Source: an uncultured Flavobacterium sp. (GTDB lineage: Bacteria; Bacteroidota; Bacteroidia; Flavobacteriales; Flavobacteriaceae). From it: a stretch of 64,000 bases of DNA. The stretch covers positions 17,374-81,373 of the forward strand of contig NZ_CAMLDD010000026.1 of NCBI RefSeq assembly GCF_946478785.1. The letters are read 5' to 3'. A program made the position numbers and the translations under genes. Shown here piece by piece: positions 5,592-59,519 of the stretch; positions within the stretch are counted from its first letter, which is position 1; every line of letters starts with the position of its first letter. Under the pieces are notes generated by a model that saw only the letters and a program-made list of their open reading frames with translations, made no database searches and was not told where the DNA came from.

Positions 5592-5594
5592 AAA

Positions 5595-6293: not shown

Positions 6294-6295
6294 TA

Positions 6296-12970: not shown

Positions 12971-13074
12971 GATATATAGTGCTCTAATAATAAATGTTTC
13001 AGAACTGTTTTAATACAGTTAGACAAAATAGAAGTTGTTATGCTTCATTTTATAAAAACCATGCTTATTTGCTT

Positions 13075-20256: not shown

Positions 20257-20284
20257 GATATTTGAATTTAAAGTGAGACAATGG

Positions 20285-20872: not shown

Positions 20873-20914
20873 TTAGTCCGTTTTGATGAAAATCATACTG
20901 TCCTTTTTAAGCCT

Positions 20915-20946
20915 TTTGAAATTCCGGCCTAATAGTAGTACCTTAG
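20915..20946 (+). promoter_or_regulatory. Probable Bacteroidota promoter of xseA
   Basis: TTTG at 20915-20918, then 20 bases, then TACCTTAG at 20939-20946 (TAnnTTTG with one change). A transcript would start near 20952, so translation most likely begins at the ATG at 20970 rather than at 20883 or 20949. Confidence 0.5.
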
Positions 20947-20969
20947 CCATGCACAAGAAATCCCGGTCA

Positions 20970-22406
20970 ATGGAAGCCCACCCCTATATCAGACTCTCAG
21001 CACTTAATGACATGATCCATGATGCGCTCCATGCGCATTTTGCAGGACAGCGTTTCTGGGTACTGGCCGATATCACCAATCATTCTTACAAGGCAGATAA
21101 GAAGATCCATTATTTTGAGCTGGTGGAGAAAGCACAGAACGGCAATGCGGTAACGGCCAAGATCATGGGAAAGTCATGGGGTACAGGAGCCATGCGTATT
21201 GAGGAATTTGAAAAAAATACAGGACAGTCTTTTACCAACAACGTGCATGTACTGGTTCAGGTAAACGTAGATTATCATCCTTTATACGGCTTGTCTGTGA
21301 GTGTGCTGGATATCGACAGCAATTTTATGCTGGGAATCTTGGAACAGCAGCGAAATGCGACCCTTGATCGTCTGGTAAAAGAAAATGATTTTATCCAAAA
21401 AGAGGGTGATTGTTACTCCACGTATAACAGCCGGCTGAAACTTGCAGCGGTAATTCAGAGGGTAGCGGTAATTTCTTCGAGCAGTTCGGCAGGAAATGAG
21501 GATTTCCGCCACACTATGCAGCATAATGATTTTGGATACGCTTTCCAGATCGATGATTATTATACGGTTGTGCAGGGAGATAACAATGCAAAACTATTCC
21601 TCAATAAACTCATCGAAATCTATAATACCGGAATCCCATATGATGCCGTTGTGATCAACAGGGGAGGAGGTTCCCAGTCTGATTTTCTGATTTTTGACAA
21701 CTATAACATCGGACGGGCGGTGGCCAAGTTTCCCATCCCGGTCATAACAGGCATAGGGCACCAGAAAAATATCAGCATCACCGATTTGATGGCCCATACC
21801 CATACCAAAACACCAACCAAGGCGGCGGAGTTTATCATTGCCCATAATCGAAGTTTTGAGTTAGGAATCCTTTCGCTGCAGCAAAATATTGTGATAAAAT
21901 CACAGCAGCTTTTTCATGAACATTACAAAGTGCTAAGCGAACTAAAAAATACTATTTCCCATAAGGCCAGGGAACTGGTACAGAAGCACGTAGAAGAGCT
22001 GACAAAAACCAATCAGCGGATCATCAATAGTTCAAGAGCCGTTTTGTATGGACATCAAAAGGCACTGATCCTAACAGCACATCAGCTGGTGCAGAGTCCG
22101 AGAATGCTGGTACAGCAGAAAAAAAATGATCTGGTGAATATAAAAAACACAATAAAGAATTCTGCAAGTGAGTATCTTCGTCGGGAGAAACTTACTTTGG
22201 AGCACCAAAAAAAAAGCGTACAGATGATGTCCCCGCAGAATATCCTTCGCAAAGGCTATGTAATTGTGAAAGCCCGTGAAAAAATTATCAGTACAGCCGA
22301 AAAAATAGAAGTTGGACAGGAGATAGAAGTAATACTGAAAGACGCCAAACTAAAAAGTACCGTTAAAGAAAAAATATTATATGATGGAAGAAATACTGAC
22401 CTATGA
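20970..22406 (+). CDS. xseA: Exodeoxyribonuclease VII large subunit, accessory copy
   Basis: 478 residues from the ATG at 20970 (chosen from the promoter; in-frame ATGs at 20883 and 20949 lie at or before the predicted transcript start). N-terminal OB-like domain (to about 130), then the catalytic part with 'VINRGGGSQSDFLIFD' and 'ITGIGHQKNISITDLMAHTHTKTPTKAAE' (one motif, about 250-310), then a coiled-coil region and a C-terminal 'QNILRKGYVIV' element. With XseB it forms ExoVII, which degrades single-stranded DNA from both ends. The family is normally a single chromosomal gene; a copy inside a mobile-element remnant is unusual and may serve recombination or repair of transferred DNA. Its end overlaps xseB. 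Confidence 0.88.
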   Translation: MEAHPYIRLSALNDMIHDALHAHFAGQRFWVLADITNHSYKADKKIHYFELVEKAQNGNAVTAKIMGKSWGTGAMRIEEFEKNTGQSFTNNVHVLVQVNVDYHPLYGLSVSVLDIDSNFMLGILEQQRNATLDRLVKENDFIQKEGDCYSTYNSRLKLAAVIQRVAVISSSSSAGNEDFRHTMQHNDFGYAFQIDDYYTVVQGDNNAKLFLNKLIEIYNTGIPYDAVVINRGGGSQSDFLIFDNYNIGRAVAKFPIPVITGIGHQKNISITDLMAHTHTKTPTKAAEFIIAHNRSFELGILSLQQNIVIKSQQLFHEHYKVLSELKNTISHKARELVQKHVEELTKTNQRIINSSRAVLYGHQKALILTAHQLVQSPRMLVQQKKNDLVNIKNTIKNSASEYLRREKLTLEHQKKSVQMMSPQNILRKGYVIVKAREKIISTAEKIEVGQEIEVILKDAKLKSTVKEKILYDGRNTDL

Positions 22407-22590
22407 GGCCGCAAAGACTGAACTGACGGCGATTTCAAAACAAATAGAAAGCGATGAAATATCAGTTGATGAACTGGCTTCAAAAGTAAAAAGAGCATCA
22501 GAATTGATCGAGTTCTGCCAGGCCAAACTTAAAAACACAGAAGCGGAAGTGACCAGGATCATCAGCAGGATGGAAAATCCTGAGGGCTGA
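22381..22590 (+). CDS. xseB: Exodeoxyribonuclease VII small subunit
   Basis: 69 residues, an antiparallel helical hairpin ('YEAAKTELTAISKQIES', 'DELASKVKRASELIEFC'), the standard XseB fold that binds the long helices of XseA. Starts 26 bases before the xseA stop, so translation is coupled and a complete ExoVII is encoded. Two ATGs in a row (22381, 22384) leave the exact start open by one codon. Confidence 0.88.
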   Translation: MMEEILTYEAAKTELTAISKQIESDEISVDELASKVKRASELIEFCQAKLKNTEAEVTRIISRMENPEG

Positions 22591-22795
22591 AAACAGGGTC
22601 TGAATAGATAAAATTGTTGCATCCTTTATTTCAAATGTAAACAATATAGGATGTTTATGAATCAAAATATCTTTGAAGATTTAAAAAAACACCATATTTT
22701 TTAAATTCAGGTGCCGAACAAATTACACAGACAATAAAAATCATTTATTGTAAGAAAAATTGATTATATTTACATGTAACCAATAATTAAAAAAA

Positions 22796-22987
22796 ATGCA
22801 GAAAGGTACAGTAAAATTCTTCAATGAAGAAAAAGGCTTCGGGTTTATAACACCAAAAAATGGCGGAAGTGAAATTTTTGTTCACGCTACCGGTTTATCA
22901 GAAAGTATTCGTGAGAACGATCAGGTACGTTATGAGGTAGAGCAAGGAAAAAAAGGCCCTAACGCCGTAAACGTGGTGGTGGTATAG
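22796..22987 (+). CDS. cspA: Cold-shock protein
   Basis: 63 residues, full length for the family. The nucleic-acid binding motifs RNP1 ('KGFGFI') and RNP2 ('EIFVHAT') are present. It acts as an RNA/single-stranded DNA chaperone. It has its own upstream AT-rich region of about 200 bases with a possible TATATTTA box at 22765-22772, and its own terminator. Lies between the ExoVII genes and the repair operon. Confidence 0.93.
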   Translation: MQKGTVKFFNEEKGFGFITPKNGGSEIFVHATGLSESIRENDQVRYEVEQGKKGPNAVNVVVV

Positions 22988-23064
22988 GGACAAACAAGAA
23001 AGACTGTTCTCAGTTCGGAACTTTTTGTTTAATCAAATCTTACTTTATTAGATTCGTAGCAAGC

Positions 23065-23104
23065 AAAGCGCTGATTTCATTTGAAACCAGCGCTTTGTTT
23101 TTTT
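23065..23104 (+). terminator. Terminator of the cold-shock gene
   Basis: Perfect 9-bp inverted repeat AAAGCGCTG/CAGCGCTTT with a 14-base loop, followed by a run of T. It lies about 80 bases after the cold-shock stop; the rest of the gap up to 23273 is plain AT-rich DNA. Confidence 0.85.
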
Positions 23105-23273
23105 ATAAGTATCTACATATTGCTATTTACTAAGCGCCTTAACATTTGCTTATTTCGTTTGTATTCAAGAATCTAATTTTTTTAGTATCATTAAAACGTA
23201 TTTCATGATTTTTTTATAAGATTGCGATTCACAACATTTTACAAAGGTTAACTGGAGAAGGCCAGCAGTTATC

Positions 23274-23924
23274 TTATCTGACCTGACGGAAAGTTAAATT
23301 AATTCGGGGCAGTACATCACGCGCGGTTTTGGGTACCTGATGTTCCCAATAGGTATTGGTATGTCCTGCCATAAGCAAAAAAGTACCGTGATGCAGGTGT
23401 ATTTCAATCTGCGGAATATCTTTGCGTGTTTTATGGCGCAGACGGAACAGTCGTGTCTCACCAAAAGTTACAGAGGCAATGTTCATGTCTTTGTTGCTGC
23501 TGGTCGTTTTATCGCTGTGCCAGCCAACTCCGTCAGTGCCGTCCCTATAGAGATTGAGCAGTACGGCATTAAATTCAATATTGGTCTGGTGCTCCACGCG
23601 CTCCCTGATCTGAAGCAGTTCTGCGGGCCACTGCGGATTTGATTTTCGTGAAGTCCTTTTGGATTCTCCATACCAGGAAATCATTCTTGGAGCCGTTACG
23701 ACTTTGTCATACATGTGCATTTCATATTCCCTCCACTGGGTAGTGTGATATAAAAAAGTATAATAATAATCGGATTCTTCCTTATTGAAGAAGTTATCGA
23801 TCAATAGCAGATCCGCATCAGGTGCTTCAAATATTTTTGTGCCTCCTTTTCCTGATGAAAAAATTTCAGTGTCATTAAACAGCATCATTGTCCTTTTCGT
23901 TTTTAATTTAAACTCTTTTGTCAA
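23274..23924 (-). CDS. alkB: AlkB-like 2-oxoglutarate/Fe(II) dioxygenase (DNA dealkylation)
   Basis: 216 residues. The iron ligands are visible as His136-x-Asp138 ('GWHSDKT') and His195 ('WEHQVPK'), and the 2-oxoglutarate contacts as Arg207 and Arg213 ('RINLTFR'). The layout, including 'ISWYG' near residue 82, matches the ALKBH2/3-like AlkB branch that removes methyl groups from bases in DNA or RNA. Third gene of the dinB-dnaE-alkB operon, 29 bases after dnaE. The true start may be the MM pair at residues 13-14. It pairs direct reversal of damage with translesion synthesis. Confidence 0.92.
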   Translation of the reverse strand: MTKEFKLKTKRTMMLFNDTEIFSSGKGGTKIFEAPDADLLLIDNFFNKEESDYYYTFLYHTTQWREYEMHMYDKVVTAPRMISWYGESKRTSRKSNPQWPAELLQIRERVEHQTNIEFNAVLLNLYRDGTDGVGWHSDKTTSSNKDMNIASVTFGETRLFRLRHKTRKDIPQIEIHLHHGTFLLMAGHTNTYWEHQVPKTARDVLPRINLTFRQVR

Positions 23925-23953
23925 TTCTTAAATCTCACAGTCCTAAAAATATT

Positions 23954-26900
23954 TTAACGGGTCATTTTTTCCCTTGGCAAATTAATTTCATGCTCCTGTG
24001 GATAAGGTGCGCGATGGGTCATACTTACGTCTTCGCGAATCTGTTGCTGGGCATGAAATCTTCTCTCATCAGTAGCACTGTATCGGGGGTCAGCAATAAA
24101 GGGCATCTTTGCCATTTTTAATATGGTAATGGTCGGGAAATGATAATCGACTTCGACCTTACCCAGCAAGAGATAGCAACCACCTCCCAGAAAAGGATAC
24201 TTTTGAAGAGAGTCTGCAAAATGCGCCGTATCGAAAAAATCTCCCTGCGCATCTATCCAGGTGCCAAAAAACATATCGCCCCGTTTGGTGGGAACGTGTT
24301 TTCTTGCAATCAAATAGGCAAGCATCCTGACTGTTTTTTTATGGAATCGGGTTAAATCCTTTGCCATTACATCGCCGCGGAAAGAAGTCTGAAGCAAATT
24401 GAACGGGGTTACCGAAACAGGGAAACTAAGCAGTTCAATTTCATCAAAAGCATCTTCATATGGAGAGCGCTCGAGTACCGGCAATTTATATTCTTTTACA
24501 GGTTCCTGAAGAAGCTTCAGGGTGCGGTTCTCAGGTTTGAAGTTGATCAGGATCAATCGTGCAATAATCAGCAATTCGTTTTTCTGTTTGCCGGTAAAAC
24601 GGAATGCACCAATAAAGATCAAAATCTGTATGGCTTCTATTCCTATGGGAACACGTTCGATGAAATCCTCAAGGGATTGATAAAGGCCATTCTCATGCCT
24701 TTCCTTTACAATCAATTCGGCAGTCAGAGAAGGCAGGCTTTTCAGATGCTGAAATCCAAGGTAAATATGGTTTCGGTATAAATTGGTCTGAATATCGCTT
24801 TTGTTGACACAGGGATTATGGATTTTGGCCCCGGACATCCTTGCCTCATGTATGTAAACCTCTGTGCGGTAAAAACCGCCAAAATTGTTGATTACCGCCG
24901 TCATGAACTCAATAGGGTAATTGACTTTCAGATACAGGCTCTGATAACTCTCAACCGCGTAAGATGCCGAGTGCGCCTTGCAGAACGAATAACCTGCAAA
25001 GGATTCAATCTGGCGATAGATTTCCTGGCTTAACGGCAAAGGATGCCCTTTTTGCGCGCAGGAAGCAAAAAAGTTGTCTTTCACTTTTTGCAGGGCGGCT
25101 TTTGACCGCCCTTTGCCTGACATGGCACGGCGCAGGATGTCCCCGTCTGCTGCGGGGAGTCCGCCGTAATGCAGGGCAATCTTTATCACATCTTCCTGAT
25201 ATACCATGATTCCGTAAGTTTCACCCAACTGTTCCCTGAATACCTCATGAAAATATTCAAAACGATCGGGATGATTGTGCCTGAAAATGTATTCTTTCAT
25301 CATGCCCGATTGGGCAACCCCGGGACGAATAATAGAAGAGGCTGCCACCAGTACCTTATAATTGTCACATTTGAGCCTTCGCAAGAGCCCTCTCATAGCC
25401 GGACTCTCAATATAAAAACATCCGATGGTTTTGCCATGGCTTAAAAACTCGTTGCATTTTGCCTCATCTTTGGAAAGTGCAGTATCACGGATATCCACAT
25501 TGATATTGCGGTTTTTCTTAATCAGTTTTACCGCGTCATCAATATGGCCAATGCCACGCTGGCTTAAAATATCAAATTTGTCAAAACCGATCTCTTCCGC
25601 GGTATGCATGTCAAACTGAATGATTGGAAAACTCTTTGGAGGCAGTTCCAAAGCCGAATAATTGGTAATAGGCTCTTCGGAAATAATAATCCCACAAGAA
25701 TGCATACTGCGCTGGTTGGGATATTTCAAAAGCATCATCCCGTATTGTTGCACCATCCTGACCACATCGTTTTTATGATGTTTGGTCATGGGATTTTTAG
25801 CCAACTGGTCCAGTTCTTCTTTAGGCAGGCCGAAAACTTTTCCAACCTCTCGAAAAATGGATTTGTGCTTGAACTCTACATTGGTACCGCAAAATGCGAC
25901 ATGGTCGGCGTCATATTTCTCAAATATGTACGTTAAGATCGAATCACGTTCGCGCCAGGACCAGTCAATGTCAAAATCGGGCGGCGTTTTTCTGTTCAGG
26001 TTCAGGAAACGCTCAAAATACAAATCAAGCTCCAGGGGACAGATATCGGTAATATCAAGGCAATAGGCCACGATGCTATTGGCACCGCTTCCTCGTCCTA
26101 TGTGAAGAAATCCCTGACTGATACTGTATTGAACAATATCCCAGGTAATAAGAAAGTAACCGCTGAATTGCAGCTCGTCAATCACACGGAGTTCCTTTTC
26201 CAGTCGCTGCAAAGCTTGTGAATTGTCAGGCCCGTATCTTCGGATCATTCCTTCATGAGCCAGTCGGGACAGCAATCTTAGATCCTCCTGTCTGTTTGCC
26301 GTATAATGCCTTTTGTTTTTGGGAGTCGTAAAATCATATTTGAAATTGCACAGTTCAATTATTTTTTGGGTGTTTTTTAAAATAACCGGATAGTCGCTGA
26401 ATTTCGAAACAAGGTCTTCCTGAGGCAGCATCACATCGGAAATCCTGCAATGGTCACTAGCAGTGAGCTTTGAGCCAATGATATTCAGATCAATTGCCCG
26501 TAGTATTTTATGCAGGCTGAATTCCTTTTTTGTCCGGTAGGTAACACTCTGCAGTACCACCATTTTATCAATTCTGTTTTTCAGGACGGGATTATACAGT
26601 TTAGTAAGCTGCTCAGCGGTAATGCCAATAAATTCATTTTCCTGCAGCACATCAGGGAAATTGTCCAATGGATAGACAACAAAGACATTTTTAAAATGAG
26701 GAGCATGGGTGGGAAGCTGACTCTTTTCAAGATTGTGCCTGGTCAGTAAACGGTTCATCTCGGCCATACCTTCGCTGTTTTTTGCCAGACCCACATAGAG
26801 CTGCCGGCAGTCATTACGGAAGTCAATCCCCACCAGCGGTTTTATTTGCAAAGGTTCGCACGCTTTTATAAAATCATAAATACCTGTTATAGTGTTAATA

Positions 26901-27010
26901 TCTGTAAGCGCCATGGCCGTAACGCCAAATGCGCCGGCTTGCTGTACCAGTTCATTTAGTGGAATAGTGCCGTAACGCAGCGAGTGGAAGCAATGGCAAT
27001 TCAGGTACAT
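23954..27010 (-). CDS. dnaE2: Error-prone DNA polymerase III alpha-like subunit (DnaE2/ImuC type)
   Basis: 1,018 residues. PHP domain 1-220, polymerase core with 'GRGSGANSIVAYCLD' and the catalytic Asp347/Asp349 ('PDFDID'), then helix-hairpin-helix and OB parts ('FSKAHSASYAVESYQS' style finger region, here beginning 'YSFCKAHSASYA'). In the PHP domain the metal ligands are changed: 'LNCH' where an HxH is expected and 'TDIN' in place of 'TDH', so it probably has no PHP nuclease function, as in translesion DnaE2 enzymes. It starts in a TAATG overlap with the dinB stop, so the two polymerases are translationally coupled and likely act together in damage-induced mutagenesis. Confidence 0.9.
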   Translation of the reverse strand: MYLNCHCFHSLRYGTIPLNELVQQAGAFGVTAMALTDINTITGIYDFIKACEPLQIKPLVGIDFRNDCRQLYVGLAKNSEGMAEMNRLLTRHNLEKSQLPTHAPHFKNVFVVYPLDNFPDVLQENEFIGITAEQLTKLYNPVLKNRIDKMVVLQSVTYRTKKEFSLHKILRAIDLNIIGSKLTASDHCRISDVMLPQEDLVSKFSDYPVILKNTQKIIELCNFKYDFTTPKNKRHYTANRQEDLRLLSRLAHEGMIRRYGPDNSQALQRLEKELRVIDELQFSGYFLITWDIVQYSISQGFLHIGRGSGANSIVAYCLDITDICPLELDLYFERFLNLNRKTPPDFDIDWSWRERDSILTYIFEKYDADHVAFCGTNVEFKHKSIFREVGKVFGLPKEELDQLAKNPMTKHHKNDVVRMVQQYGMMLLKYPNQRSMHSCGIIISEEPITNYSALELPPKSFPIIQFDMHTAEEIGFDKFDILSQRGIGHIDDAVKLIKKNRNINVDIRDTALSKDEAKCNEFLSHGKTIGCFYIESPAMRGLLRRLKCDNYKVLVAASSIIRPGVAQSGMMKEYIFRHNHPDRFEYFHEVFREQLGETYGIMVYQEDVIKIALHYGGLPAADGDILRRAMSGKGRSKAALQKVKDNFFASCAQKGHPLPLSQEIYRQIESFAGYSFCKAHSASYAVESYQSLYLKVNYPIEFMTAVINNFGGFYRTEVYIHEARMSGAKIHNPCVNKSDIQTNLYRNHIYLGFQHLKSLPSLTAELIVKERHENGLYQSLEDFIERVPIGIEAIQILIFIGAFRFTGKQKNELLIIARLILINFKPENRTLKLLQEPVKEYKLPVLERSPYEDAFDEIELLSFPVSVTPFNLLQTSFRGDVMAKDLTRFHKKTVRMLAYLIARKHVPTKRGDMFFGTWIDAQGDFFDTAHFADSLQKYPFLGGGCYLLLGKVEVDYHFPTITILKMAKMPFIADPRYSATDERRFHAQQQIREDVSMTHRAPYPQEHEINLPREKMTR

Positions 27011-28218
27011 TATTCCGGATTTTTAAGGTTACTATTTTGTGCTTTGGGAGTAGAGATGATATTCCCTGCTTTTGATTTAAGGTTCCTGCCTCCGCAGCGG
27101 GTAACGGCTTCAAAGCCATAACGCTTTTTGAGTTTGTCCATTACCTGATAAAGCGCCAGCATCTCTTCGGTGTTTTCAAACATGTTGATCTGGAAGTTTC
27201 CGCGTACCAGATTGGTAAAGGTGACTCCCACAAGACGGATGCGCATACGGCGGTTGTAGAGTTTTTGAAATAACTCCAGTGCTATTTTACCCAAAATATG
27301 ATCACATGAGGTATATGCTATTTTTTTTTGCATGTTTTGGGTATCAAAATTGGCATATCGTATTTTGACCGATACAGTCGAAACCAGCCACTGTTCACAT
27401 CGTGCCTGAAAACCCAGTTTTTCGACCATTCCTAAAATGAGGGATTCTACGTGTCTAATGTCAATAGTATCCTGAAGATAAGTATGTTCTGTTGAAAGGG
27501 ATTTCCTGTCGGTATAAGGCTCAACGGGCGAATTGTCAATGCCATTGGCTTTTTTCCATAATTCCAGCCCATTTTTCCCTATCAGGCTTTGCAGCACTTC
27601 AGCGGGTGTTTCGGACAATTTTTCTATGTTTCGGATTCCCAGTCGCGAGAGCAGGTTAAAGGTGACTTCGCCCACCATAGGAATTTTACGGATGGAGAGC
27701 GGATTAAGAAAGGGCTGCACCATATGACGCGGGATTTCAAGGTTGCCTTTTGGCTTTCCTTCCCCGGTTGCTATTTTGGAAACTGTTTTATTGACCGACA
27801 AGGCAAAACTTATAGGCAGCCCTGTTTCACGGATTATGGTTTGTGAGAGTTCGTTTGTCCATTTGTAGCTGCCATGAAACCTGTCCATCCCTGTAATGTC
27901 GAGATAAAATTCATCAATACTGGCTTTTTCTACCAATGGGGCTTTCTCTTCAATAATCTGGGTTACTTCATGGGACTTGTTTGAGAAGAATTCCATGTCC
28001 CCTTTAACGACTTTTGCCTGTGGGCAAAGCTGCAAAGCCATGCGAATGGGCATTGCAGAGCGTACCCCAAAATACCTCGCTTCATACGAACAGGAAGCGA
28101 CAACGCCCCTTTCACCGCCGCCTACAATCAGAGGGATTCCCTGAAGTTTCGGATTATTTAATTTGACGCAGGAAACAAAAAACGTATCCAGATCCATGTG
28201 TACAATTGCCCGCTCCAT
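27010..28218 (-). CDS. dinB: DNA polymerase IV (Y-family translesion polymerase)
   Basis: 402 residues, normal for Pol IV plus a short tail. Catalytic residues are in 'MDLDTFF' (Asp8, Asp10) and 'ASIDEFYLD' (Asp/Glu near 105). Helix-hairpin-helix region near 'IRKIPMVGEVTFNLLSRLGI', then the little-finger domain. The tail ends '...NSNLKNPE' with no clear clamp-binding motif. First gene of the operon; a palindrome about 60 bases upstream is a candidate SOS operator. Confidence 0.94.
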   Translation of the reverse strand: MERAIVHMDLDTFFVSCVKLNNPKLQGIPLIVGGGERGVVASCSYEARYFGVRSAMPIRMALQLCPQAKVVKGDMEFFSNKSHEVTQIIEEKAPLVEKASIDEFYLDITGMDRFHGSYKWTNELSQTIIRETGLPISFALSVNKTVSKIATGEGKPKGNLEIPRHMVQPFLNPLSIRKIPMVGEVTFNLLSRLGIRNIEKLSETPAEVLQSLIGKNGLELWKKANGIDNSPVEPYTDRKSLSTEHTYLQDTIDIRHVESLILGMVEKLGFQARCEQWLVSTVSVKIRYANFDTQNMQKKIAYTSCDHILGKIALELFQKLYNRRMRIRLVGVTFTNLVRGNFQINMFENTEEMLALYQVMDKLKKRYGFEAVTRCGGRNLKSKAGNIISTPKAQNSNLKNPE

Positions 28219-30449: not shown

Positions 30450-30560
30450 AGGAGCTTTTTCCCGCTATCCGTTCCAATCTTTTGCGCCGAACCACGGCAC
30501 AAAAGGATTTCCACTGCACACGAGCGAAGCGAACTGGCGAAGCAATCGGGGCTAGGGCTG
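30450..30560. repeat. Dispersed intergenic hairpin repeat, copy 1
   Basis: Begins AGGAGCTTTTTCCCGCT and ends GGGCTAGGGCT, with a central hairpin CTTTTGCGCCG-AACCA-CGGCACAAAAG (30479-30505). The same layout recurs at 46909-46990 with a changed stem that still pairs. Between the hairpin and the end this copy has about 27 extra bases. Confidence 0.7.
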
Positions 30561-46908: not shown

Positions 46909-46990
46909 AGGAGCTGTTTCCTGCTGTACACTATATCTTTTATGCCGAACCCCGGCATAAAAGGATGCCGTTTCCATCAGGGCTAGGGCT
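46909..46990. repeat. Dispersed intergenic hairpin repeat, copy 2
   Basis: AGGAGCTGTTTCCTGCT at the start, GGGCTAGGGCT at the end, and a perfect central hairpin CTTTTATGCCG-AACCC-CGGCATAAAAG (46937-46963). It matches copy 1 at 30450-30560, with paired stem changes. The rest of the gap up to 47190 is AT-rich without features. Confidence 0.75.
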
Positions 46991-52384: not shown

Positions 52385-52412
52385 TTGAACTATAATTTAT
52401 AGTATGGAAAGC
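52385..52412. repeat. Left dif-like attachment site
   Basis: TTGAACTATAA-TTTATA-GTATGGAAAGC. The centre GAAC-ATAATTTATA-TATG-AAA is shared with the right site at 59492-59519. The XerD-side half is less like dif than in the right copy, as is common when one half comes from the phage. Confidence 0.65.
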
Positions 52413-52460
52413 ACTTTTTTCGGAATGTTTTAAGTATATTTGTCATAGATTTTTATCAAT

Positions 52461-52504
52461 AAGAGGCGAGGTTTTGGCGAACCGTTCGAGCCTCTTTTTT
52501 TTAT
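52461..52504 (+). terminator. Hairpin with T-run near the left end of the element
   Basis: AAGAGGC...GCCTCTT with further pairing inside, followed by eight T. Could end transcription from the host side, or be a packaging or replication hairpin of the phage. The DNA from 52325 to 52660 holds otherwise the left site and repeat copy A, and no gene. Confidence 0.55.
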
Positions 52505-52515
52505 GGTTAATAATT

Positions 52516-52614
52516 TTAACGTTGTTTTGTTGTTCCTGGAAAAAGCACCGGTTATTGTTTTAACGTTGTTTCTTTCTTCAGCTGAACAGATCAATTTTTT
52601 TTATAACGTTATTT
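52516..52614. repeat. Three-fold AACGTTRTTT repeat block, copy A
   Basis: Holds AACGTTGTTT (52518), TCCTGGAAAAAG (52534), AACGTTGTTT (52562), TCAGCTG (about 52578), and AACGTTATTT (52605). The same words in the same order occur at 57962-58061. Candidate phage intergenic region such as Rep-binding iterons or a strand origin. Confidence 0.7.
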
Positions 52615-52660
52615 GCTCTTAGGGTTAGGGCTACGCCAGTTAACGAATTAATAATATAAC

Positions 52661-52894
52661 CTAAAAATTTAAATGTTCTTTATTTCTTGTAATATATCCG
52701 ATTTGTGGACCACAAGAACCATCTTCGTTTTTTAGATAGATTTTAAGGTATTTAAAAGCTTCTTTGCTTCGCCAGTAATAACTGAGATATTGCAAAGAAG
52801 CTTCTTTAAATTTGAACCAACACGAGTTTGTACCGTTCTTAAGTATGTGATTAAAAGTGACTTTTAGTAAGCCGTTCTTTAGTTTTGTAGACAT
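52661..52894 (-). CDS. Small phage-element protein, unknown function
   Basis: 77 residues, rich in aromatic and basic residues ('CWFKFKEASLQYLSYYWRSK'), no membrane helix. It is the last gene in the minus-strand direction, 150 bases after the structural gene at 53049. A small hairpin (GACAC...GTGTC inside CGAGA...TCTCG) lies just upstream of its ATG. The frame is short, so it may not be a real gene. Confidence 0.45.
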   Translation of the reverse strand: MSTKLKNGLLKVTFNHILKNGTNSCWFKFKEASLQYLSYYWRSKEAFKYLKIYLKNEDGSCGPQIGYITRNKEHLNF

Positions 52895-53048
52895 GTATTT
52901 AGATTTTTATCAACGAGAGACACTTGGCGGTGTCGTTTTATTTCTCGCAGAAGTTTTGCCAAATATACATATATTTTTGATTTTAAATGTTAAAATTTTA
53001 AGAGTTAAACTCTACCCCTACCCGAGTGGAGAGGGGCAAAGTTTTTTT

Positions 53049-53933
53049 TTAAGGAACAATATAGATATCTGAATTTCTAAATACTCCCTGAGCATCACGA
53101 ATATAAATCTCAGTACCGCTAACAAAGTTGTTTACTCCTAAATAGATATCAGGGTATGAAGAAGGATTTAAACCGCCTGTAGATTCAAAAGCTTGCATCT
53201 CCGGCGTTTTAATCATTACAATAATTCTATTGTTGTAATTTGCGTCCAAAATGCCTTGCTCTAACCAAATATTAAGAATGTACGTTTCAGTGTTATATTT
53301 GTTGATTACACCGCATTTCGGTATGAAATACTCACTCAAATCATAAGTTTCACTTTTTCGACCTGTAAACAAATCTTTGAAATAAACATATCTAAAAGGC
53401 TTTAAACTGTTATAAGATTCATCTGTTCTAAATTCAGGAACAACGTAGTAAGATACGTTTGTTTGGTCTCCATTCTGAGAAACTACGATTGAGGCTGTTG
53501 GTCTGTCTTCACTTTCCCAAAATGCCTTATCAAATCTCTCCCAATTTCCATCCGGTACACTAAAATAGATATCATGCGGAGATTGATAATTGTTATAGCG
53601 AAGAACTGGCAAACCTTCATTAAACCAAATCATAGGTTCAAATGAATAATCTATAGGATAAATTTCGTCAACCTGACAGACATTTTCTAAGTAAGTGAAT
53701 GCTTTTCTAAAGTCTGATTGTTTGATTACCGAAGTATCGAAAAACTCTGTAGATATGATTAAACGCTCTAAATCCGTCAACTTTAAGCATTGATGCGGTT
53801 CTTTTATAAACTCAATACCTTTTCTGATATTGGTAAAAATGCAAGCTTCATTTAACAGGATTGGAGCGTTTAAATTCTCGACCTCTATCGTATGAAGTGC
53901 ATAATTTTCATTGATGTAATATAGTACATACAT
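53049..53933 (-). CDS. Phage-element protein, possibly spike or other structural protein
   Basis: 294 residues, almost wholly beta by pattern, no signal peptide, no membrane helix and no family I recognise. It is the largest product of the late part of the element and lies directly after (3 bases) a membrane-anchored protein gene, which would suit a vertex or receptor-binding protein. Function is inference from position. Confidence 0.65.
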   Translation of the reverse strand: MYVLYYINENYALHTIEVENLNAPILLNEACIFTNIRKGIEFIKEPHQCLKLTDLERLIISTEFFDTSVIKQSDFRKAFTYLENVCQVDEIYPIDYSFEPMIWFNEGLPVLRYNNYQSPHDIYFSVPDGNWERFDKAFWESEDRPTASIVVSQNGDQTNVSYYVVPEFRTDESYNSLKPFRYVYFKDLFTGRKSETYDLSEYFIPKCGVINKYNTETYILNIWLEQGILDANYNNRIIVMIKTPEMQAFESTGGLNPSSYPDIYLGVNNFVSGTEIYIRDAQGVFRNSDIYIVP

Positions 53934-53936
53934 AGC

Positions 53937-54482
53937 TTAAATTTTTAGACCATTTCTGACAAGAATTAACTCTTTATCGTCTAATAGTTCGTTTATATCT
54001 TTTCTTAAGTTCCTTGAATTTGTATCTATTTCGTAGTACAATTTTTCCAAAATAGGGAAGTAGTTACGATATTTTAAAAGTGTATTTCTTATTGAAGCAT
54101 CGTTTTCCGTCCAGCCTCTCGGGTTTAATCTATCTAACCAACCGCCTGTATCTGAGTAGGTAAAACCGAAATCATGTGCTAATTTTGTTGATGCTGCCCA
54201 AAGTTCAGAACTGCCCGTAATTTTTCTACGTCTGGAATTTTGTGAATTGGGATTAGCATTTTGTATTACTTTGATTTCCTTGACTACTTCAAACGTTTTT
54301 TCCGTTTCTTTTAGAAGATTGTCAGATTGATTGTTTTTTATGGCTGTCTTTTGATCGTCTAAGTATCTTTTTAAATAAGGGACTGCAATTAGCAGTCCCG
54401 TTATTACTATCCAGTTACGTTTTATGAAGTCTAAAAAATCATTAACGCCCGTTTTTTTGGATGTTTTACTATTTCTTATCAT
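53937..54482 (-). CDS. Phage-element membrane-anchored protein
   Basis: 181 residues with one membrane helix near the N-terminus ('WIVITGLLIAVPYL', about 29-42), then a coiled and globular part ('TKLAHDFGFTYSDTGGWLDR'). Overlaps the 36-codon membrane gene upstream by 14 bases. Likely a virion membrane protein. No known family. Confidence 0.65.
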   Translation of the reverse strand: MIRNSKTSKKTGVNDFLDFIKRNWIVITGLLIAVPYLKRYLDDQKTAIKNNQSDNLLKETEKTFEVVKEIKVIQNANPNSQNSRRRKITGSSELWAASTKLAHDFGFTYSDTGGWLDRLNPRGWTENDASIRNTLLKYRNYFPILEKLYYEIDTNSRNLRKDINELLDDKELILVRNGLKI

Positions 54483-54579
54483 GGATAAAGATTTTGTAAC
54501 CTAAGGCAACTACGCCAATTACTAATGCTCCAATGATGTAAACTTGATTTGCGATGATAAATGTTTTTACTTTTTCCAT
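54469..54579 (-). CDS. Tiny membrane protein of the phage element (36 residues)
   Basis: Reads 'MEKVKTFIIANQVYIIGALV...' and ends 'IFIHDKK'. One hydrophobic helix with a charged tail; start and stop overlap the neighbouring gene in the phage manner. Confidence 0.6.
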   Translation of the reverse strand: MEKVKTFIIANQVYIIGALVIGVVALGYKIFIHDKK

Positions 54580-54647
54580 TTTTAAATGATTTTTCTAATT
54601 ATAAATTAATTTTCTATTTGTGCTTTTTTTTCTTTTATCGAACCATG

Positions 54648-55175
54648 TTAGCAAAAAAAAACAGCCAAAAATGCTAATGCGGGTAATAGTGGCTTCCAAC
54701 TTTTTTTAATAACAACTTGTAAAACGTTATCGGACATGTTTCCTAAAACTTCTAAAGCTTGCTGTATATCTGAATCGGTAACTTGTGTGTGGGATGCTCC
54801 AAGTTCTACTTTCATTATTGCCCTTGCTAATTGAATCAAAAAGGCGTTATTAATGCTCGTAATTTTTTGGTCAGCTGTAACGCCCAAAGTTTTGCAAACA
54901 GCGGTAATATATGCCTCTGTGTTGTTTTCTGTTGGTGGTGCGTACTCCTTGATTAACAAACGAACGGTGTTTTTGCCTTTCTTGATATCGTTAATCAAAT
55001 CCCTCAGCATAGCACGGATGCCAAATTTTAAAGTTGTGAACTGCTCAAATTTCAAGTCTTTGCTCTGTGGAAATGGTATTTTTCCCTGCCAAGCTATTGA
55101 GGTTCTAATAAGGTTGCCCGGATTGTTGTTTCGTAAACCTCTTACGGTGTGATTATTCAGAAATGACTTCGACAT
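54648..55175 (-). CDS. Lysozyme/transglycosylase-like phage protein with membrane tail
   Basis: 175 residues. The N-terminal 'RGLRNNNPGNLI' and 'FTTLKFGIRAMLRDL', with 'YAPPTENNTEAYI', are typical of the structural muramidase-like proteins found in tailless membrane-containing phages and in some tailed phages. A C-terminal hydrophobic helix ('LLPALAFLAVFFC') would anchor it in a membrane. Likely opens the peptidoglycan during entry or release. It overlaps the 51-codon gene upstream. Confidence 0.8.
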   Translation of the reverse strand: MSKSFLNNHTVRGLRNNNPGNLIRTSIAWQGKIPFPQSKDLKFEQFTTLKFGIRAMLRDLINDIKKGKNTVRLLIKEYAPPTENNTEAYITAVCKTLGVTADQKITSINNAFLIQLARAIMKVELGASHTQVTDSDIQQALEVLGNMSDNVLQVVIKKSWKPLLPALAFLAVFFC

Positions 55176-55308
55176 CTTTTGGCTCTTTTGGGTTTAGGTC
55201 TTCTATCGTTTTTATAGCAAATTCAACTATTTTGAAGATTGCTAAGGCGTAAACTCCGAATTTCGATACAGTTCTTAAACCGTTTAATAATTTTTCAAAT
55301 TTTCCCAT
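55153..55308 (-). CDS. Tiny membrane protein of the phage element (51 residues), holin-like
   Basis: Starts at the ATG at 55308 ('MGKFEKLLNGLRTVSKFGVY'). One amphipathic to hydrophobic helix ('GVYALAIFKIVEFAIKTI') and an acidic tail ending 'DVEVISE'. It overlaps the lysozyme-like gene start by 23 bases; that place would suit a holin, but it could be a virion membrane protein. Confidence 0.6.
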   Translation of the reverse strand: MGKFEKLLNGLRTVSKFGVYALAIFKIVEFAIKTIEDLNPKEPKDVEVISE

Positions 55309-55311
55309 GAT

Positions 55312-55803
55312 TTAAGATTTAAAGTTTTTTCCAAAATATCCGGTTACTCTTTTTCCTTTTCGTGTAACTCCTGAACCGTTTGGAGTGATACACAAACTCA
55401 GTTCCTGAATTACAATAACCTGACTTTTTAAATTCATTAGAACATGATACGTTTGACTTGTCCCGAGAGTAGTATTTTTGATTGTACAAATCATTTTTTG
55501 ATACTCTTTTTCTTGGTTTCCCGATTTACCCTGAGAATTGACAATTTCAAGACCTTTTTTTCCTTGACCGGAATAAGGTGCTACTGTGGCAGTCATTAAA
55601 CCCATTTTTGTAGCCCTCCAAGCATTTACAATTGTATCGCCTTCGAATGCACCTTTTCTAATCTTTGAATAGGTTGCACCGCTACGCTTATACTGCTGTT
55701 GTTGTGCTTGTGGTGCTTGCTGTCTTTGTGGAGCAAATGACGCGTTTTGCGCTCTTACTGGGTAAAAATTACCGTCTGTGCCTTTGTAATATTGTTGTGA
55801 CAT
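55312..55803 (-). CDS. Phage-element protein with Gln-rich N-terminus
   Basis: 163 residues. N-terminal 'YYKGTDGNFYPV' then a Gln/Ala/Arg-rich stretch (20-40), then a basic, beta-rich domain ('KIRKGAFEGDTIVNAWRATK'). The basic region could bind DNA; single-stranded DNA binding proteins of small phages are of similar size. No family is recognised. Confidence 0.6.
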   Translation of the reverse strand: MSQQYYKGTDGNFYPVRAQNASFAPQRQQAPQAQQQQYKRSGATYSKIRKGAFEGDTIVNAWRATKMGLMTATVAPYSGQGKKGLEIVNSQGKSGNQEKEYQKMICTIKNTTLGTSQTYHVLMNLKSQVIVIQELSLCITPNGSGVTRKGKRVTGYFGKNFKS

Positions 55804-55805
55804 GA

Positions 55806-55985
55806 TTATTGTAGATTTTGATTACTAATTACTTCTTTTGGCTTTTTGAACATTTTCCACAATGTTGCAATTCCTATAACAACCTGAATTGCGATTTTTA
55901 TAATCTCACTCGTTGGAGTGGGAGCGGGAAAGGTTTCAACTCCTTGAATTGCACCTATCCCGACTGTACCAGTTAAAAAATGCAT
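55806..55985 (-). CDS. Tiny membrane protein of the phage element (59 residues)
   Basis: Reads 'MHFLTGTVGIGAIQGVETFP', then a helix 'EIIKIAIQVVIGIATLWKMF' and a Lys-rich end. Stop-start overlap with the gene before it at 55985. One-helix membrane protein, probable virion component. Confidence 0.6.
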   Translation of the reverse strand: MHFLTGTVGIGAIQGVETFPAPTPTSEIIKIAIQVVIGIATLWKMFKKPKEVISNQNLQ

Positions 55986-56494
55986 TATCTGCGACCTCTT
56001 TTTGATGAACTACTACCCATTTTTTTGTAGAAGAAAAGACCTCCGCAAATGACACCTGCACCAATCAATAAATGTGACCAATGTTTTTTGAACCATGCAT
56101 TTATCCCGTAATCAGCTACCGTACTTGCTACAGTTCCGAGTGTTTGCTTTGTTGAATCCGAAGCTTGTAAAATCAATTCGTCAGTTACACCTTTTGAAAA
56201 GGTTTTTAAAGTACTTCCTGCAACCTGACCAACGTTTGCGCCTGCAAGTTGTGCCTGTTGTTGTGCTACCTGAGCATAGTATTCTGCCTGTGCTTGGTTT
56301 CCAGCCTCTATAGCTGCTTTTTCTGCTTTTTTCGCCTCATGTGCCTCACTTAATCCAGATACGACATTTTGAGCTAAGCCACCAACTACGGGTACCATAG
56401 ATAAAAGCGGTGTACCGATTTTAACCACGTTTTTAAGCGAAATTTGTTTCGCTCCCTTTTTGATAGCCTTCCCGATTTTTTTAAAGAATCCCAT
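55985..56494 (-). CDS. Phage-element protein with Ala/Gln-rich coiled region and membrane helix
   Basis: 169 residues. N-terminal basic amphipathic helix ('FFKKIGKAIKKGAKQI'), a small hydrophobic region with Gly ('PLLSMVPVVGGLAQNVV'), a long Ala/Gln/Glu-rich helix (50-95), and a C-terminal membrane helix ('HLLIGAGVICGGLFFY') with a basic tail. The form is like minor capsid or DNA-ejection proteins of small phages. The 1-base overlap with the candidate capsid gene shows tight coupling. Confidence 0.65.
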   Translation of the reverse strand: MGFFKKIGKAIKKGAKQISLKNVVKIGTPLLSMVPVVGGLAQNVVSGLSEAHEAKKAEKAAIEAGNQAQAEYYAQVAQQQAQLAGANVGQVAGSTLKTFSKGVTDELILQASDSTKQTLGTVASTVADYGINAWFKKHWSHLLIGAGVICGGLFFYKKMGSSSSKRGRR

Positions 56495-57213
56495 TATCCT
56501 TCAATTCTACATAAAAGGTTAACGATATTCCCTTGTGACTTTCTGATGTTTACAGAAGTGACACCAAATAAAGGAATTTGAATTTTTGAAGCAAAACCAC
56601 TCAATACAGTACCGTCCTGCTTTACGTAGGCTACTGGGTCGATTTCACGGCTTAAACATTTCAATTCGTGCAATGTGTATTTTACTACTACACCATTCAT
56701 GAAAGTGTAAGCGATTTCAGTAATATCTGCGGAATTGTCTAATAAAGCCAAATCGCAATGCTCGATATCAAAAGTTTTGTCTTTGTCATCGGATGACATT
56801 GATTTGTTTTCAAAAGCAAGAACAGATTCAGCAAGTTGTGGCTCTTCGATTGTATTCAACACATAAGTGTTTGCTGTTTTCAATCCCTGCAACTCGATTT
56901 TGATAACGTCTTTTTCGTCCAAAAAGATGTAACCATTTTCGGCAATCTCACAAACTGCAAGTGTTTTGTAAGTTGCATCAGCTGAAACTGCATCGCCATT
57001 GAAAGTAGTAAGCAAAATAAAGTCCATTAAAGACATAAAGCCTTTTGTAATCTCCAAGTTGCCACTTTTGCGCTCAACTTCGATTTTAATTTGCTCAGTT
57101 GTCAATTCCTCGACACCAATAGACAAAGAAAGTAACAAGCCTCCGAAGGATTTGTTTTGGGTAATCGTTCCCGATTTGGTAAGGTTCTTACCTTGTGAAT
57201 TAAAAATTTCCAT
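56494..57213 (-). CDS. Candidate major capsid protein of the phage element
   Basis: 239 residues, beta-rich throughout with no signal peptide or membrane helix. First gene after the terminator at 57263, i.e. the head of the structural block, with an AT-rich leader. Strand-rich soluble protein of this size, followed by membrane proteins and the lysozyme-like protein, suggests a jelly-roll capsid protein. No sequence signature supports this; it is an inference from order and composition. Confidence 0.5.
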   Translation of the reverse strand: MEIFNSQGKNLTKSGTITQNKSFGGLLLSLSIGVEELTTEQIKIEVERKSGNLEITKGFMSLMDFILLTTFNGDAVSADATYKTLAVCEIAENGYIFLDEKDVIKIELQGLKTANTYVLNTIEEPQLAESVLAFENKSMSSDDKDKTFDIEHCDLALLDNSADITEIAYTFMNGVVVKYTLHELKCLSREIDPVAYVKQDGTVLSGFASKIQIPLFGVTSVNIRKSQGNIVNLLCRIEG

Positions 57214-57262
57214 GTTTTTTCATAATTGATTTATAATTATTTTCAGAGGCAAAAAAAGGCAC

Positions 57263-57287
57263 AAAAAAACCGCACTATTTGCGGTTT
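57263..57287 (-). terminator. Terminator after the small regulator gene
   Basis: AAACCGCA-CTATT-TGCGGTTT with seven A on the low-coordinate side, i.e. a T-run on the minus strand. It separates the regulator from the structural block. Confidence 0.85.
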
Positions 57288-57345
57288 GTTCTTTTCTGTA
57301 CTTTATTGTGCAATATTGTATTTTATATGTCGTTTTGATTTGTGT

Positions 57346-57507
57346 TTATTTGGCACTAATTTTGAAATATCGGTTTATATGGTCAAGACAAACAATTTGT
57401 ATTACATACTCTTTCTTTATATCAGAAATGTATTTTTTTGCAGTATTCAAATGGACACCCATCGATGAGGCTAATTCTTTAGCGGTAATTACTTTTAATG
57501 TTTCCAT
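57346..57507 (-). CDS. Small helix-turn-helix protein of the phage element (53 residues)
   Basis: Reads 'METLKVITAKELASSMGVHL' then 'NTAKKYISDIK'. 'ITAKELASSMGVHLNTAKKY' is a clear helix-turn-helix of the kind found in small phage regulators and excisionases. Probably controls the element's own promoters. Followed by a terminator. Confidence 0.75.
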   Translation of the reverse strand: METLKVITAKELASSMGVHLNTAKKYISDIKKEYVIQIVCLDHINRYFKISAK

Positions 57508-57554
57508 GTTATTAGGTTTTGGGTTAGAAAGGGGAGGGGTGCAACCCTCCTTTT

Positions 57555-57779
57555 TTAGTTGAACAAATCAAACTGTATTACTGGCAATTTACTTACATCT
57601 ACGAGGGGGACGAAAATTTCATTTTCGCTTAGTGCTTGTTTAGGTAAATGGAACTTACATTTGTCACGCTTGAACGTGATTTCTGTAAATTTTGTACACA
57701 TTCCTGCATCACGGGTAGCGGTGTGATGTAGGAATTTTGAATTATCGAATGAGGCGCAATTTTCGCATGTTTCAGCCAT
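57555..57779 (-). CDS. Small Cys-rich protein of the phage element
   Basis: 74 residues with 'CENCASF', then a Cys in 'GMCTKF' and one in 'DKCKFH', a four-Cys pattern that could bind zinc. Small zinc proteins with nucleic-acid roles are common near phage replication genes. The gap from 57780 to 58055 contains repeat copy B. Confidence 0.65.
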   Translation of the reverse strand: MAETCENCASFDNSKFLHHTATRDAGMCTKFTEITFKRDKCKFHLPKQALSENEIFVPLVDVSKLPVIQFDLFN

Positions 57780-57961
57780 ATTTTCAGATTTAGTAAATTA
57801 ACACTTTTGTTAAATGAATCCCGACTATCATTAGTCGGGATTTTGAACTTTTTTGAACTCAGATAAAAGCCATTTACAAACGGCTATAAAATCTTGAAAA
57901 TTCAGTATCATTTTTGTAAGAATTTAGATTGATTTTTGTTTTACATAAGTTTTTTTATGTT

Positions 57962-58061
57962 TCAACGTTATTTTTAGTGTTTGATCCTGGAAAAAGTTGC
58001 ATGTTTTAACGTTGTTTTAGTCAGCTGCAGAAAAGATCCGGAACAAGTTTTAACGTTATTT
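57962..58061. repeat. Three-fold AACGTTRTTT repeat block, copy B
   Basis: AACGTTATTT (57964), TCCTGGAAAAAG (about 57985), AACGTTGTTT (58008), TCAGCTG (58021), AACGTTATTT (58052). Same words and order as copy A at 52516-52614, in the same direction. The last unit overlaps the stop of the next gene. Confidence 0.7.
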
Positions 58062-58301
58062 CTTTTTAAACAAAGCATTAAAATGACCTTTGAATCCATC
58101 TACATGATATTTTAAATCACGTAAATCATTTTTAGCGGTATGAAGTTGAGTTCTTAAATCCTCAATTTCTTTCAATTTCTTTAAATAATTGACTGTACAA
58201 TATTCTACAGCTTTAGAATTTGTATTGATTTCAAAACGAAGTTTAACCTCGTTTACTGTGTTTTCAAAATCTTCTGAGATGTTTCTTAAATCTATATTCA
58301 T
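58056..58301 (-). CDS. Small coiled-coil protein of the phage element
   Basis: 81 residues with a predicted helical, heptad-like centre ('LKEIEDLRTQLHTAKNDLRDL') and a basic end. Lies 11 bases downstream of the rep gene and is probably translated with it. It could help Rep or bind DNA. Confidence 0.6.
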   Translation of the reverse strand: MNIDLRNISEDFENTVNEVKLRFEINTNSKAVEYCTVNYLKKLKEIEDLRTQLHTAKNDLRDLKYHVDGFKGHFNALFKKK

Positions 58302-58312
58302 AAGCTTAGTTT

Positions 58313-59440
58313 TTAAAGGTTTACACCTATGTTTTGTAAAAATTTGTTACTACGTTCGTTATTGATAATTTGAGTTTTTAAATTCTTATCACGGTTTTTT
58401 AAATCATCAATAAGCTTTTTTGCTTTGGTTTTAGTTCTTGACCTTGAAACAGGACAATCAATTAAATGTGTAAAACCAAGTAATTTTTCTTGGTCAAATC
58501 CTAATTTTATTAGGTTCTCGATGTAAAATTGTACCATAATATCGGAGGGGTTTAATTCTTTATCTACTTTCGATTTGGCTTTAGGCTCTATGTAGTGAAC
58601 AATGCCACTTTTAGCGATTAATGCCAAATCTCGGGGACTGGCTTTTAATAAATCGAAAAAGGTTTTAAAATCAGCTTTAAAGCCTTGTTTACATAAATAT
58701 TCCTTGTGTTTATGTGCTTTGATTGTAAACTCATATCTAACAAGATTATCAATTACGCTTGCTTTCATCGGCTCGAGAAAAGCCTTATAAAAGGTGATAG
58801 ACTTTGATAGCAATTCAAAGCCTTTATGATAAATTTTACAGTAAGGTGTTGTATTTGTTGCTTTTTCACGTTTATTGAAGTCTAAACCAAGATTATTAGT
58901 GTTTTTGATAGAATTGGATTGCGAAATGTGATGTAGTAAAGGTTTTTTTCCTGAATTTGGATTTTCAAGGATTAAAGAAAATGCAGTTTTTAAACTCTTT
59001 AAATCAATGAGTTGATTAATGCAAATATCGATATCAGAAACAAGGCCTTCCAAAAAGTCCTTAGTAGAAATCCTAATAACACCAAATGAATTAATATCGT
59101 CAACAATAGAACGATAATTTTCGGCAGTAATGCCCTCAAAATACTTTGATTTAAGCATCTTAGCCGAAATCTGAAAAACGATGTATTCATGCGCTTGTTT
59201 TTTTGAATCTATAAAGGCTTTGATATAAAACCTATACGTAATTCCGTTAATGATTTTTGTGAATGGTTCAGCTTTGCGATAGTTATCGCCAAGTTTTTGC
59301 TGTTCTGTTCCGTCATCGTCTAAGTGTGCGATATCAGGATAATACGCTATAAAGTCCGTAATCAACCGTTTATCAAGGATTTTTACCTTTTCCAGTTTTA
59401 CACGAATCTTTAGCGAATCTATTAAGCCAGTGTTAAACAT
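58313..59440 (-). CDS. Putative replication initiation protein (filamentous-phage gpII / Rep-like)
   Basis: 375 residues. The layout follows rolling-circle initiators of filamentous phages: N-terminal 'LIDSLKIRVKL', a central 'VSDIDICINQL' that corresponds to the R-x-D-x-x-x-D strand of these proteins, 'YCKIYHKGFELL' with the Tyr-rich motif, and 'NLVRYEFTIKAHKH' near residue 230. A basic C-terminus follows. It would nick the double-stranded form to start strand displacement. First gene of the minus-strand set, next to the right dif-like site. Family assignment rests on motif order only. Confidence 0.6.
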   Translation of the reverse strand: MFNTGLIDSLKIRVKLEKVKILDKRLITDFIAYYPDIAHLDDDGTEQQKLGDNYRKAEPFTKIINGITYRFYIKAFIDSKKQAHEYIVFQISAKMLKSKYFEGITAENYRSIVDDINSFGVIRISTKDFLEGLVSDIDICINQLIDLKSLKTAFSLILENPNSGKKPLLHHISQSNSIKNTNNLGLDFNKREKATNTTPYCKIYHKGFELLSKSITFYKAFLEPMKASVIDNLVRYEFTIKAHKHKEYLCKQGFKADFKTFFDLLKASPRDLALIAKSGIVHYIEPKAKSKVDKELNPSDIMVQFYIENLIKLGFDQEKLLGFTHLIDCPVSRSRTKTKAKKLIDDLKNRDKNLKTQIINNERSNKFLQNIGVNL

Positions 59441-59491
59441 ATCAAAAAGATTAGGATTAACAAGTTGACTATCAGGTATATGTTATATAAA

Positions 59492-59519
59492 GTGAACCAT
59501 AATTTATATTATGTAAAAT
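59492..59519. repeat. Right dif-like attachment site
   Basis: GTGAACCATAA-TTTATA-TTATGTAAAAT. It resembles the Escherichia coli dif halves GGTGCGCATAA and TTATGTTAAAT with a 6-base centre, more closely than the left copy does. The rest of the gap 59441-59788 is AT-rich with no gene. Confidence 0.7.

What the first reader, a model, noticed from the sequence alone, without database searches (positions are those of the whole stretch)
52385..59519. Compact 7.1-kb prophage-like element: Rep, lysozyme and many tiny membrane proteins, but no integrase, tail or packaging ATPase
All genes run on one strand, overlap by 1-23 bases, and include a rolling-circle-type Rep, a small regulator, a lysozyme-like protein with a membrane anchor, and at least five proteins of 36-181 residues with a single membrane helix. 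That set fits a tailless phage with an internal or enveloping membrane and a single-stranded genome. Filamentous phages would need a Zot-like ATPase, which I do not see; Microviridae do not usually carry this many membrane proteins. FLiP-like Flavobacterium phages are the nearest outline I know, but the capsid gene is not recognised, so this could be a new family or a satellite.
Basis: partly seen in the sequence, partly recalled or inferred. Interest (0 to 1): 0.85.

Follow-up and report, generated by a model that had tools for sequence, protein, structure and literature searches.

The report
Membrane-bearing ssDNA prophage integrated at dif
A 7.1-kb stretch of a flavobacterial genome is a dormant, apparently complete virus of a recently described kind (small tailless phages with an inner membrane) that is most likely inserted by the host's own chromosome-separating enzymes, so it is real but mostly ordinary apart from an unfamiliar replication gene.

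The parts
52386..59517 (-). whole prophage, attL to attR; genes on the minus strand
52386..52410 (+). attL: dif-like site with host-like XerC arm and degenerate XerD arm (GTATGGAAA)
   Evidence: arm names by comparison with the E. coli dif, recalled
59493..59517 (+). attR: dif-like site with perfect host XerD arm (TTATGTAAA)
52518..52613 (-). array 2 of three AAYAACGTT boxes, 43-44 bp apart
57964..58060 (-). array 1 of three AAYAACGTT boxes, 44 bp apart
52661..52894 (-). 77-aa ORF, weak likeness to Omtje gene 6
   Evidence: blastp E 0.002 in a 28-protein set; 84-85% identical copies in L005, L007, L036
53049..53933 (-). spike: N-terminal penton domain (1-88) and variable distal part
   Evidence: sequence match to PhiCjT23 gp13 not significant
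53937..54482 (-). 181-aa structural protein (PhiCjT23 gp12 / Omtje g1 type)
   Evidence: (phrog_19410, E 5e-6)
54469..54579 (-). 36-aa membrane protein (PhiCjT23 gp11 type, weak)
   Evidence: (E 0.018)
54648..55175 (-). lysozyme-like protein with hydrophobic tail (PhiCjT23 gp10)
55153..55308 (-). 51-aa protein, borderline membrane helix, position of PhiCjT23 gp09
   Evidence: position only
55312..55803 (-). 163-aa structural protein (Omtje g11 / PhiCjT23 gp07 type)
   Evidence: (phrog_20522, E 3e-25)
55806..55985 (-). 59-aa membrane protein
   Evidence: (copies in L003, L007, L013, L036)
55985..56494 (-). 169-aa membrane-type protein (PhiCjT23 gp06)
   Evidence: 34%, E 9e-30
56494..57213 (-). 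major capsid protein
57346..57507 (-). 53-aa HTH-like protein between Rep and capsid genes
   Evidence: below cut-off; copies in relatives
57555..57779 (-). 74-aa ORF, no family
58056..58301 (-). 81-aa ORF, no family above cut-off
58313..59440 (-). replication initiator of an unnamed family, Rep_trans-like predicted fold

Best explanation
This is an apparently intact prophage of the PhiCjT23 kind, that is, of a temperate, icosahedral, tailless phage with a ssDNA genome and an inner membrane. Shown by sequence or predicted fold: capsid protein, spike, lysozyme and several membrane-type genes in PhiCjT23 order between two dif-like sites at the place where relatives have an empty dif or another such prophage. 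Inferred: host XerC/XerD recombine a phage attP with a weak XerD arm into the chromosomal dif; the junction next to Rep then carries the host's perfect XerD arm and can still serve as dif, while the other junction carries the weak phage arm, which would make the prophage stable. Inferred: after excision Rep nicks the circle for rolling-circle replication, capsid trimers and pentameric spikes assemble on a membrane vesicle as proposed for PhiCjT23, and the membrane-anchored lysozyme serves entry or lysis. The initiator differs in sequence from that of PhiCjT23 and seems to be an exchangeable part in the slot between attP and the capsid gene.
Confidence: 0.94

Rival explanations
1. A remnant: the block comes from a PhiCjT23-like phage but no longer makes particles.
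For: No induction data exist; the paper itself says particle assembly from such prophages remains to be verified.
Against: All listed genes have open frames, both junctions are present and the core genes match PhiCjT23; capsid genes of the 16 hits in 199 genomes are also open, without internal stops.
Confidence: 0.2
2. A satellite or plasmid-like element that uses a helper's capsid.
For: Small size and no packaging ATPase recognised.
Against: It has its own capsid protein and a spike with the matching penton domain, and PhiCjT23, an isolated phage, has 7.6 kb and the same outline.
Confidence: 0.03
3. The 375-residue protein is not a replication initiator but another DNA-binding protein.
For: No Pfam or NCBIfam name; most other middling fold matches are TATA-binding proteins; profile search in the PDB gave no initiator.
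Against: It fills the slot that holds Rep_trans-type or Rep_1 initiators in relatives; the three best fold rows are all rolling-circle initiators, over residues 1 to about 311-314; 5 of 50 family members show weak matches to the G2P replication family, best E 7e-4; 28 of the 120 listed relatives have a longest contig of 5.5-7.7 kb, the size of the phage (counted by hand).
Confidence: 0.1

Closest known systems
Flavobacterium phage PhiCjT23 (ON067806) and the 57 putative PhiCjT23-like prophages of Kejzar et al. 2022 (PMC9719478)
   Same: Capsid protein family, penton fold of the spike, lysozyme, order of genes from Rep to spike, size, dif flanks.
   Different: Rep of another, unnamed family; spike sequence not recognisably similar; PhiCjT23 genes gp01, gp02, gp14 and gp15 gave no significant counterpart; AAYAACGTT arrays absent from PhiCjT23.
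Obscuriviridae (Cellulophaga phages Omtje, phi12:2, phi12a:1)
   Same: Capsid protein homologous (29-31%); relatives of the 163-aa and 181-aa structural proteins.
   Different: Rep of the Rep_trans type; lysozyme not matched; isolated as free phages; marine host.
Finnlakeviridae (phage FLiP)
   Same: Outline of a tailless membrane-containing ssDNA phage of Flavobacterium with a double beta-sandwich capsid (PMC9719478, abstract and sections).
   Different: FLiP is not among the 12 phage records matched by the capsid protein; FLiP has a separate canonical penton protein and spike, here one protein has the PhiCjT23-type penton. FLiP proteins were not compared one by one.

Membership tests
PhiCjT23-like phages and prophages | Major capsid protein homologous to PhiCjT23 gp5 | tested here: met
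   38.5% over 226 residues; 7zzz E 2.4e-47
PhiCjT23-like phages and prophages | Initiator gene followed closely by capsid gene in a block of about 6.0-8.4 kb | tested here: met
   Rep at 58313-59440, capsid at 56494-57213, block 7.1 kb; initiator status by fold and position
PhiCjT23-like phages and prophages | dif-like sites at both ends | tested here: met
PhiCjT23-like phages and prophages | One-protein spike with small-beta-barrel penton domain | tested here: met
PhiCjT23-like phages and prophages | Rep homologous to PhiCjT23 gp03 | tested here: inconclusive
   no blastp match of note (E 0.49 over 30 residues); weak profile match; both point to the Geobacillus rolling-circle initiator, one by fold, one by published HHPred
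PhiCjT23-like phages and prophages | ssDNA genome and lipid in the virion | not testable with these tools
   needs particles
Finnlakeviridae | Separate canonical penton protein plus spike protein | tested here: inconclusive
   the spike's penton domain is of the PhiCjT23 type; FLiP's own proteins were not searched for in the window
Obscuriviridae | Shared core proteins, Rep and lysis enzyme included | tested here: not met
   capsid and two structural proteins match Omtje, Rep and lysozyme do not
Inoviridae and other filamentous phages | Zot-like ATPase | tested here: not met
   no Zot family for the ten larger or structural ORFs in Pfam or PHROGs at E up to 1
Microviridae | Microvirus capsid protein | tested here: not met
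   capsid protein matches PhiCjT23 and Obscuriviridae only; GenBank's Microviridae label on Omtje is not followed by ICTV
Rep_trans (PF02486) initiators | Match to the Pfam model at its cut-off | tested here: not met
   0 families for the window protein; PF02486 is not among the 25 families listed for 50 family members
Rep_trans (PF02486) initiators | Fold of the initiator domain | tested here: inconclusive
Rep_trans (PF02486) initiators | Catalytic tyrosine and nicking | not tested
   an invariant Tyr-204 lies in a YHK motif, but its equivalence was not examined

The most novel reading that the evidence does not exclude
The dif site works as a meeting point at which membrane-containing ssDNA phages of flavobacteria exchange whole replication initiators: one capsid lineage carries three initiator classes (an unnamed family with a Rep_trans-like fold, PhiCjT23-type Rep_trans, and HUH-type Rep_1) in the slot between attP and the capsid gene, and the Obscuriviridae, so far known as free phages, belong to the same dif-using lineage. 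In the window the paired AAYAACGTT arrays flank attP and Rep, and integration parts array 2 from Rep, which could silence replication in the prophage.
Probability: 0.4. Interest if true: 0.55.

Novelty: new member of a known kind. Interest (0 to 1): 0.36.

Why it matters
PhiCjT23-like phages are used to argue how ssDNA and dsDNA viruses with double-beta-sandwich capsids are related. If a capsid lineage keeps its shell but changes initiators among close relatives, replication and capsid genes have separate histories, and a fixed integration site makes that countable across a genus. The work also gives a likely role to a family of 143 unnamed proteins.

Tried and rejected
Filamentous-phage reading: no Zot family. 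Microvirus reading: capsid relatives lie elsewhere. Direct phage match of the Rep: none by tblastn at E 0.01; in IMG/VR, 55 stretches matched a pattern but none encodes a relative. The Rep profile against PDB sequences gave a cohesin-loader chain (E 6e-4) and a septin (E 0.9); I take both as chance, since they are not initiators and cover parts. Spike against PhiCjT23 spike by sequence: not significant (blastp E 0.26; hhalign E 0.066; no PDB chain at E 1). Foldseek's listed top 50 showed neither the initiators nor the penton; both came from the second look. The FN3-like matches of spike residues 205-294 lie in a part with pLDDT mostly under 60 and are not used. Box arrays as a general feature: dropped; of 7 loci with this Rep class (window included) only the window shows a significant array-to-array repeat (129 columns, 67%, E 2e-9), L007 has two boxes at each place, L036 one and two, the other four none there. 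The IMG/VR scan with the capsid alignment gave two loci only, of 6453 and 6478 bases, both Cellulophaga phages by length. In the capsid tree the labels are clustered, not random (6 changes against a shuffled mean of 12.2, 0 of 200 as low), so initiators mostly follow the capsid; exchange is occasional.
Full report
What is there. Between 52386 and 59517 the plausible genes all run on the minus strand. In their order: attR, a 375-aa Rep, 81-aa, 74-aa and 53-aa (HTH-like) ORFs, the 239-aa capsid protein, 169-aa and 59-aa membrane-type proteins, a 163-aa structural protein, a 51-aa protein, a 175-aa lysozyme-like protein, a 36-aa membrane protein, a 181-aa structural protein, the 294-aa spike, a 77-aa ORF, attL.

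Integration. The end repeats recur nowhere else in the window, and in none of 100 shuffles. A scan of GTDB genome contigs with the capsid alignment gave 34 loci: 32 titled Flavobacterium, one Flavobacteriaceae, one Flavobacteriales. In 31 of 34, DUF294 lies on one side and NDH2, a Bcr/CflA transporter or a small ORF of the window on the other, as in the window; L010 and L021 end at a contig edge on the side in question, L034 has other flanks. Flank genes of L008 (F. salmonis) are 93-98% identical to the window's (small ORF 56%), while its prophage differs (capsid 41%, PhiCjT23-type Rep): close hosts, different phages, one site. Of 35 rows (window included) the spike-side site was found in 35 and the Rep-side site in 34 (L021 is cut), with up to 5 mismatches allowed (L019 needs 4). 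The Rep-side site has the perfect XerD arm in 33 of 34; the exception, L028, lies the other way round relative to the host genes and has it on the spike side. The spike-side arm begins GTATG in 31 of 35; the rest are L013 (TTATG, then diverging), L028, L031 and L032. A sample of 199 genomes of the genus gave the site in 69 and the capsid gene in 16, all 16 without internal stops. Of 30 loci fetched, 25 are from genomes without a capsid match; all 25 have one site with the uninterrupted host sequence, 24 have DUF294 within the 1.5 kb held on either side, and 13 also a gene of the other flank. PhiCjT23 carries the phage form of the site. Kejzar et al. already reported dif sites at both ends of such prophages and inferred XerC/XerD integration (sections 6, 7, 12 and 15 read; passages). 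Naming of the arms follows the E. coli dif, recalled.

Exchange of initiators. Of the 35 rows, 7 carry this Rep class, 25 a PhiCjT23/Omtje-type Rep, 2 a Rep_1 protein (PF01446, E 2e-13 and 2e-14), and L021 is cut before the Rep. The PhiCjT23 and Omtje Reps match PF02486 just below its cut-off. A tree of 45 capsid proteins (the 35 rows, PhiCjT23, Omtje, and 8 of the 16 loci; the other 8, near-copies or repeats of loci already in, were left out) puts 8 rows with the window's Rep class and 3 with Rep_1 in one supported group (100/98), and a supported set of 5 inside it (99/94) holds 3 and 2 of them, interleaved. Supported branches force at least 2 changes for Rep_trans, 3 for the window class, 2 for Rep_1. 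The ninth row of the window class (L084) falls outside that group on a long, unsupported branch. The labels are nonetheless clustered (6 changes, shuffled mean 12.2), so exchange is occasional. Identities to the window show the mosaic: L007 Rep 88%, capsid 53%; L006 87% and 51%; L005 83% and 52%; L036 82% and 77%; L013 79% and 68%; L003 33% and 66%. Mechanism and direction are inference; Rep lies next to attP, so one breakpoint could be the dif site itself.

Box arrays. AAYAACGTT occurs 6 times in the 64-kb window, all in the element, as two arrays of three, 43-44 bp apart. In the circle they would flank attP, Rep and the 81-aa ORF. A role in control or origin function is a guess.

Side result. 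Against two forms of the site, the 6453-base phage (phi12:2 by length) has 1 mismatch of 21 and the 6478-base one (phi12a:1 type by length) 2, neither reached in 500 shuffles; Omtje has 3 (2 of 500 shuffles as good). L034, sister of Omtje in the tree (100/98), lies between two such sites in a bacterial contig. So Obscuriviridae may be able to integrate. In PMC11946311 the whole words prophage, lysogen and dif do not occur; in PMC8776804, of which I saw 12 of 20 passages, Omtje has no integrase and lifestyle is judged by integrases. ICTV gives the family no realm (passages).

Literature. 'CjT23' occurs in 6 papers of the library, all listed. I read sections of PMC9719478 and passages of PMC11946311, PMC8776804, PMC12451628 and PMC13269007.

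Verdict. A well-supported new member of a known kind.

Noticed in passing
L037, L038, L002 (Cellulophaga phages) and L034:6051-12943: Phages of the Obscuriviridae type carry a dif-like site, and a relative lies between two such sites in a Flavobacteriales contig, so this family may be able to integrate at dif.
   Followed up: partly
L028:6717-14623: The only one of 34 rows whose prophage is turned round relative to the host genes; its perfect XerD arm is on the spike side.
   Followed up: partly
window 20883-28218: A DnaE-type polymerase (23954-27010), a Y-family polymerase (27010-28218), a DUF932 protein (19228-20370) and an exonuclease VII large subunit (20883-22406) lie close together in a stretch of higher G+C; resembles a mutagenic-repair cassette.
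   Followed up: no
window 46913-46988 and 30454-30535, minus strand: Two Flavo-1 RNA matches above the Rfam gathering score, consistent with a flavobacterial host.
   Followed up: no
window 10508-17748: Two long ORFs of 820 and 1584 aa in a row without any Pfam match at E 1e-5, behind a PKD-domain protein.
   Followed up: no
window 5001-7000: G+C drops to 23-25% against about 32-35% for much of the window; a 232-aa ORF there (5595-6293) has no Pfam match.
   Followed up: no
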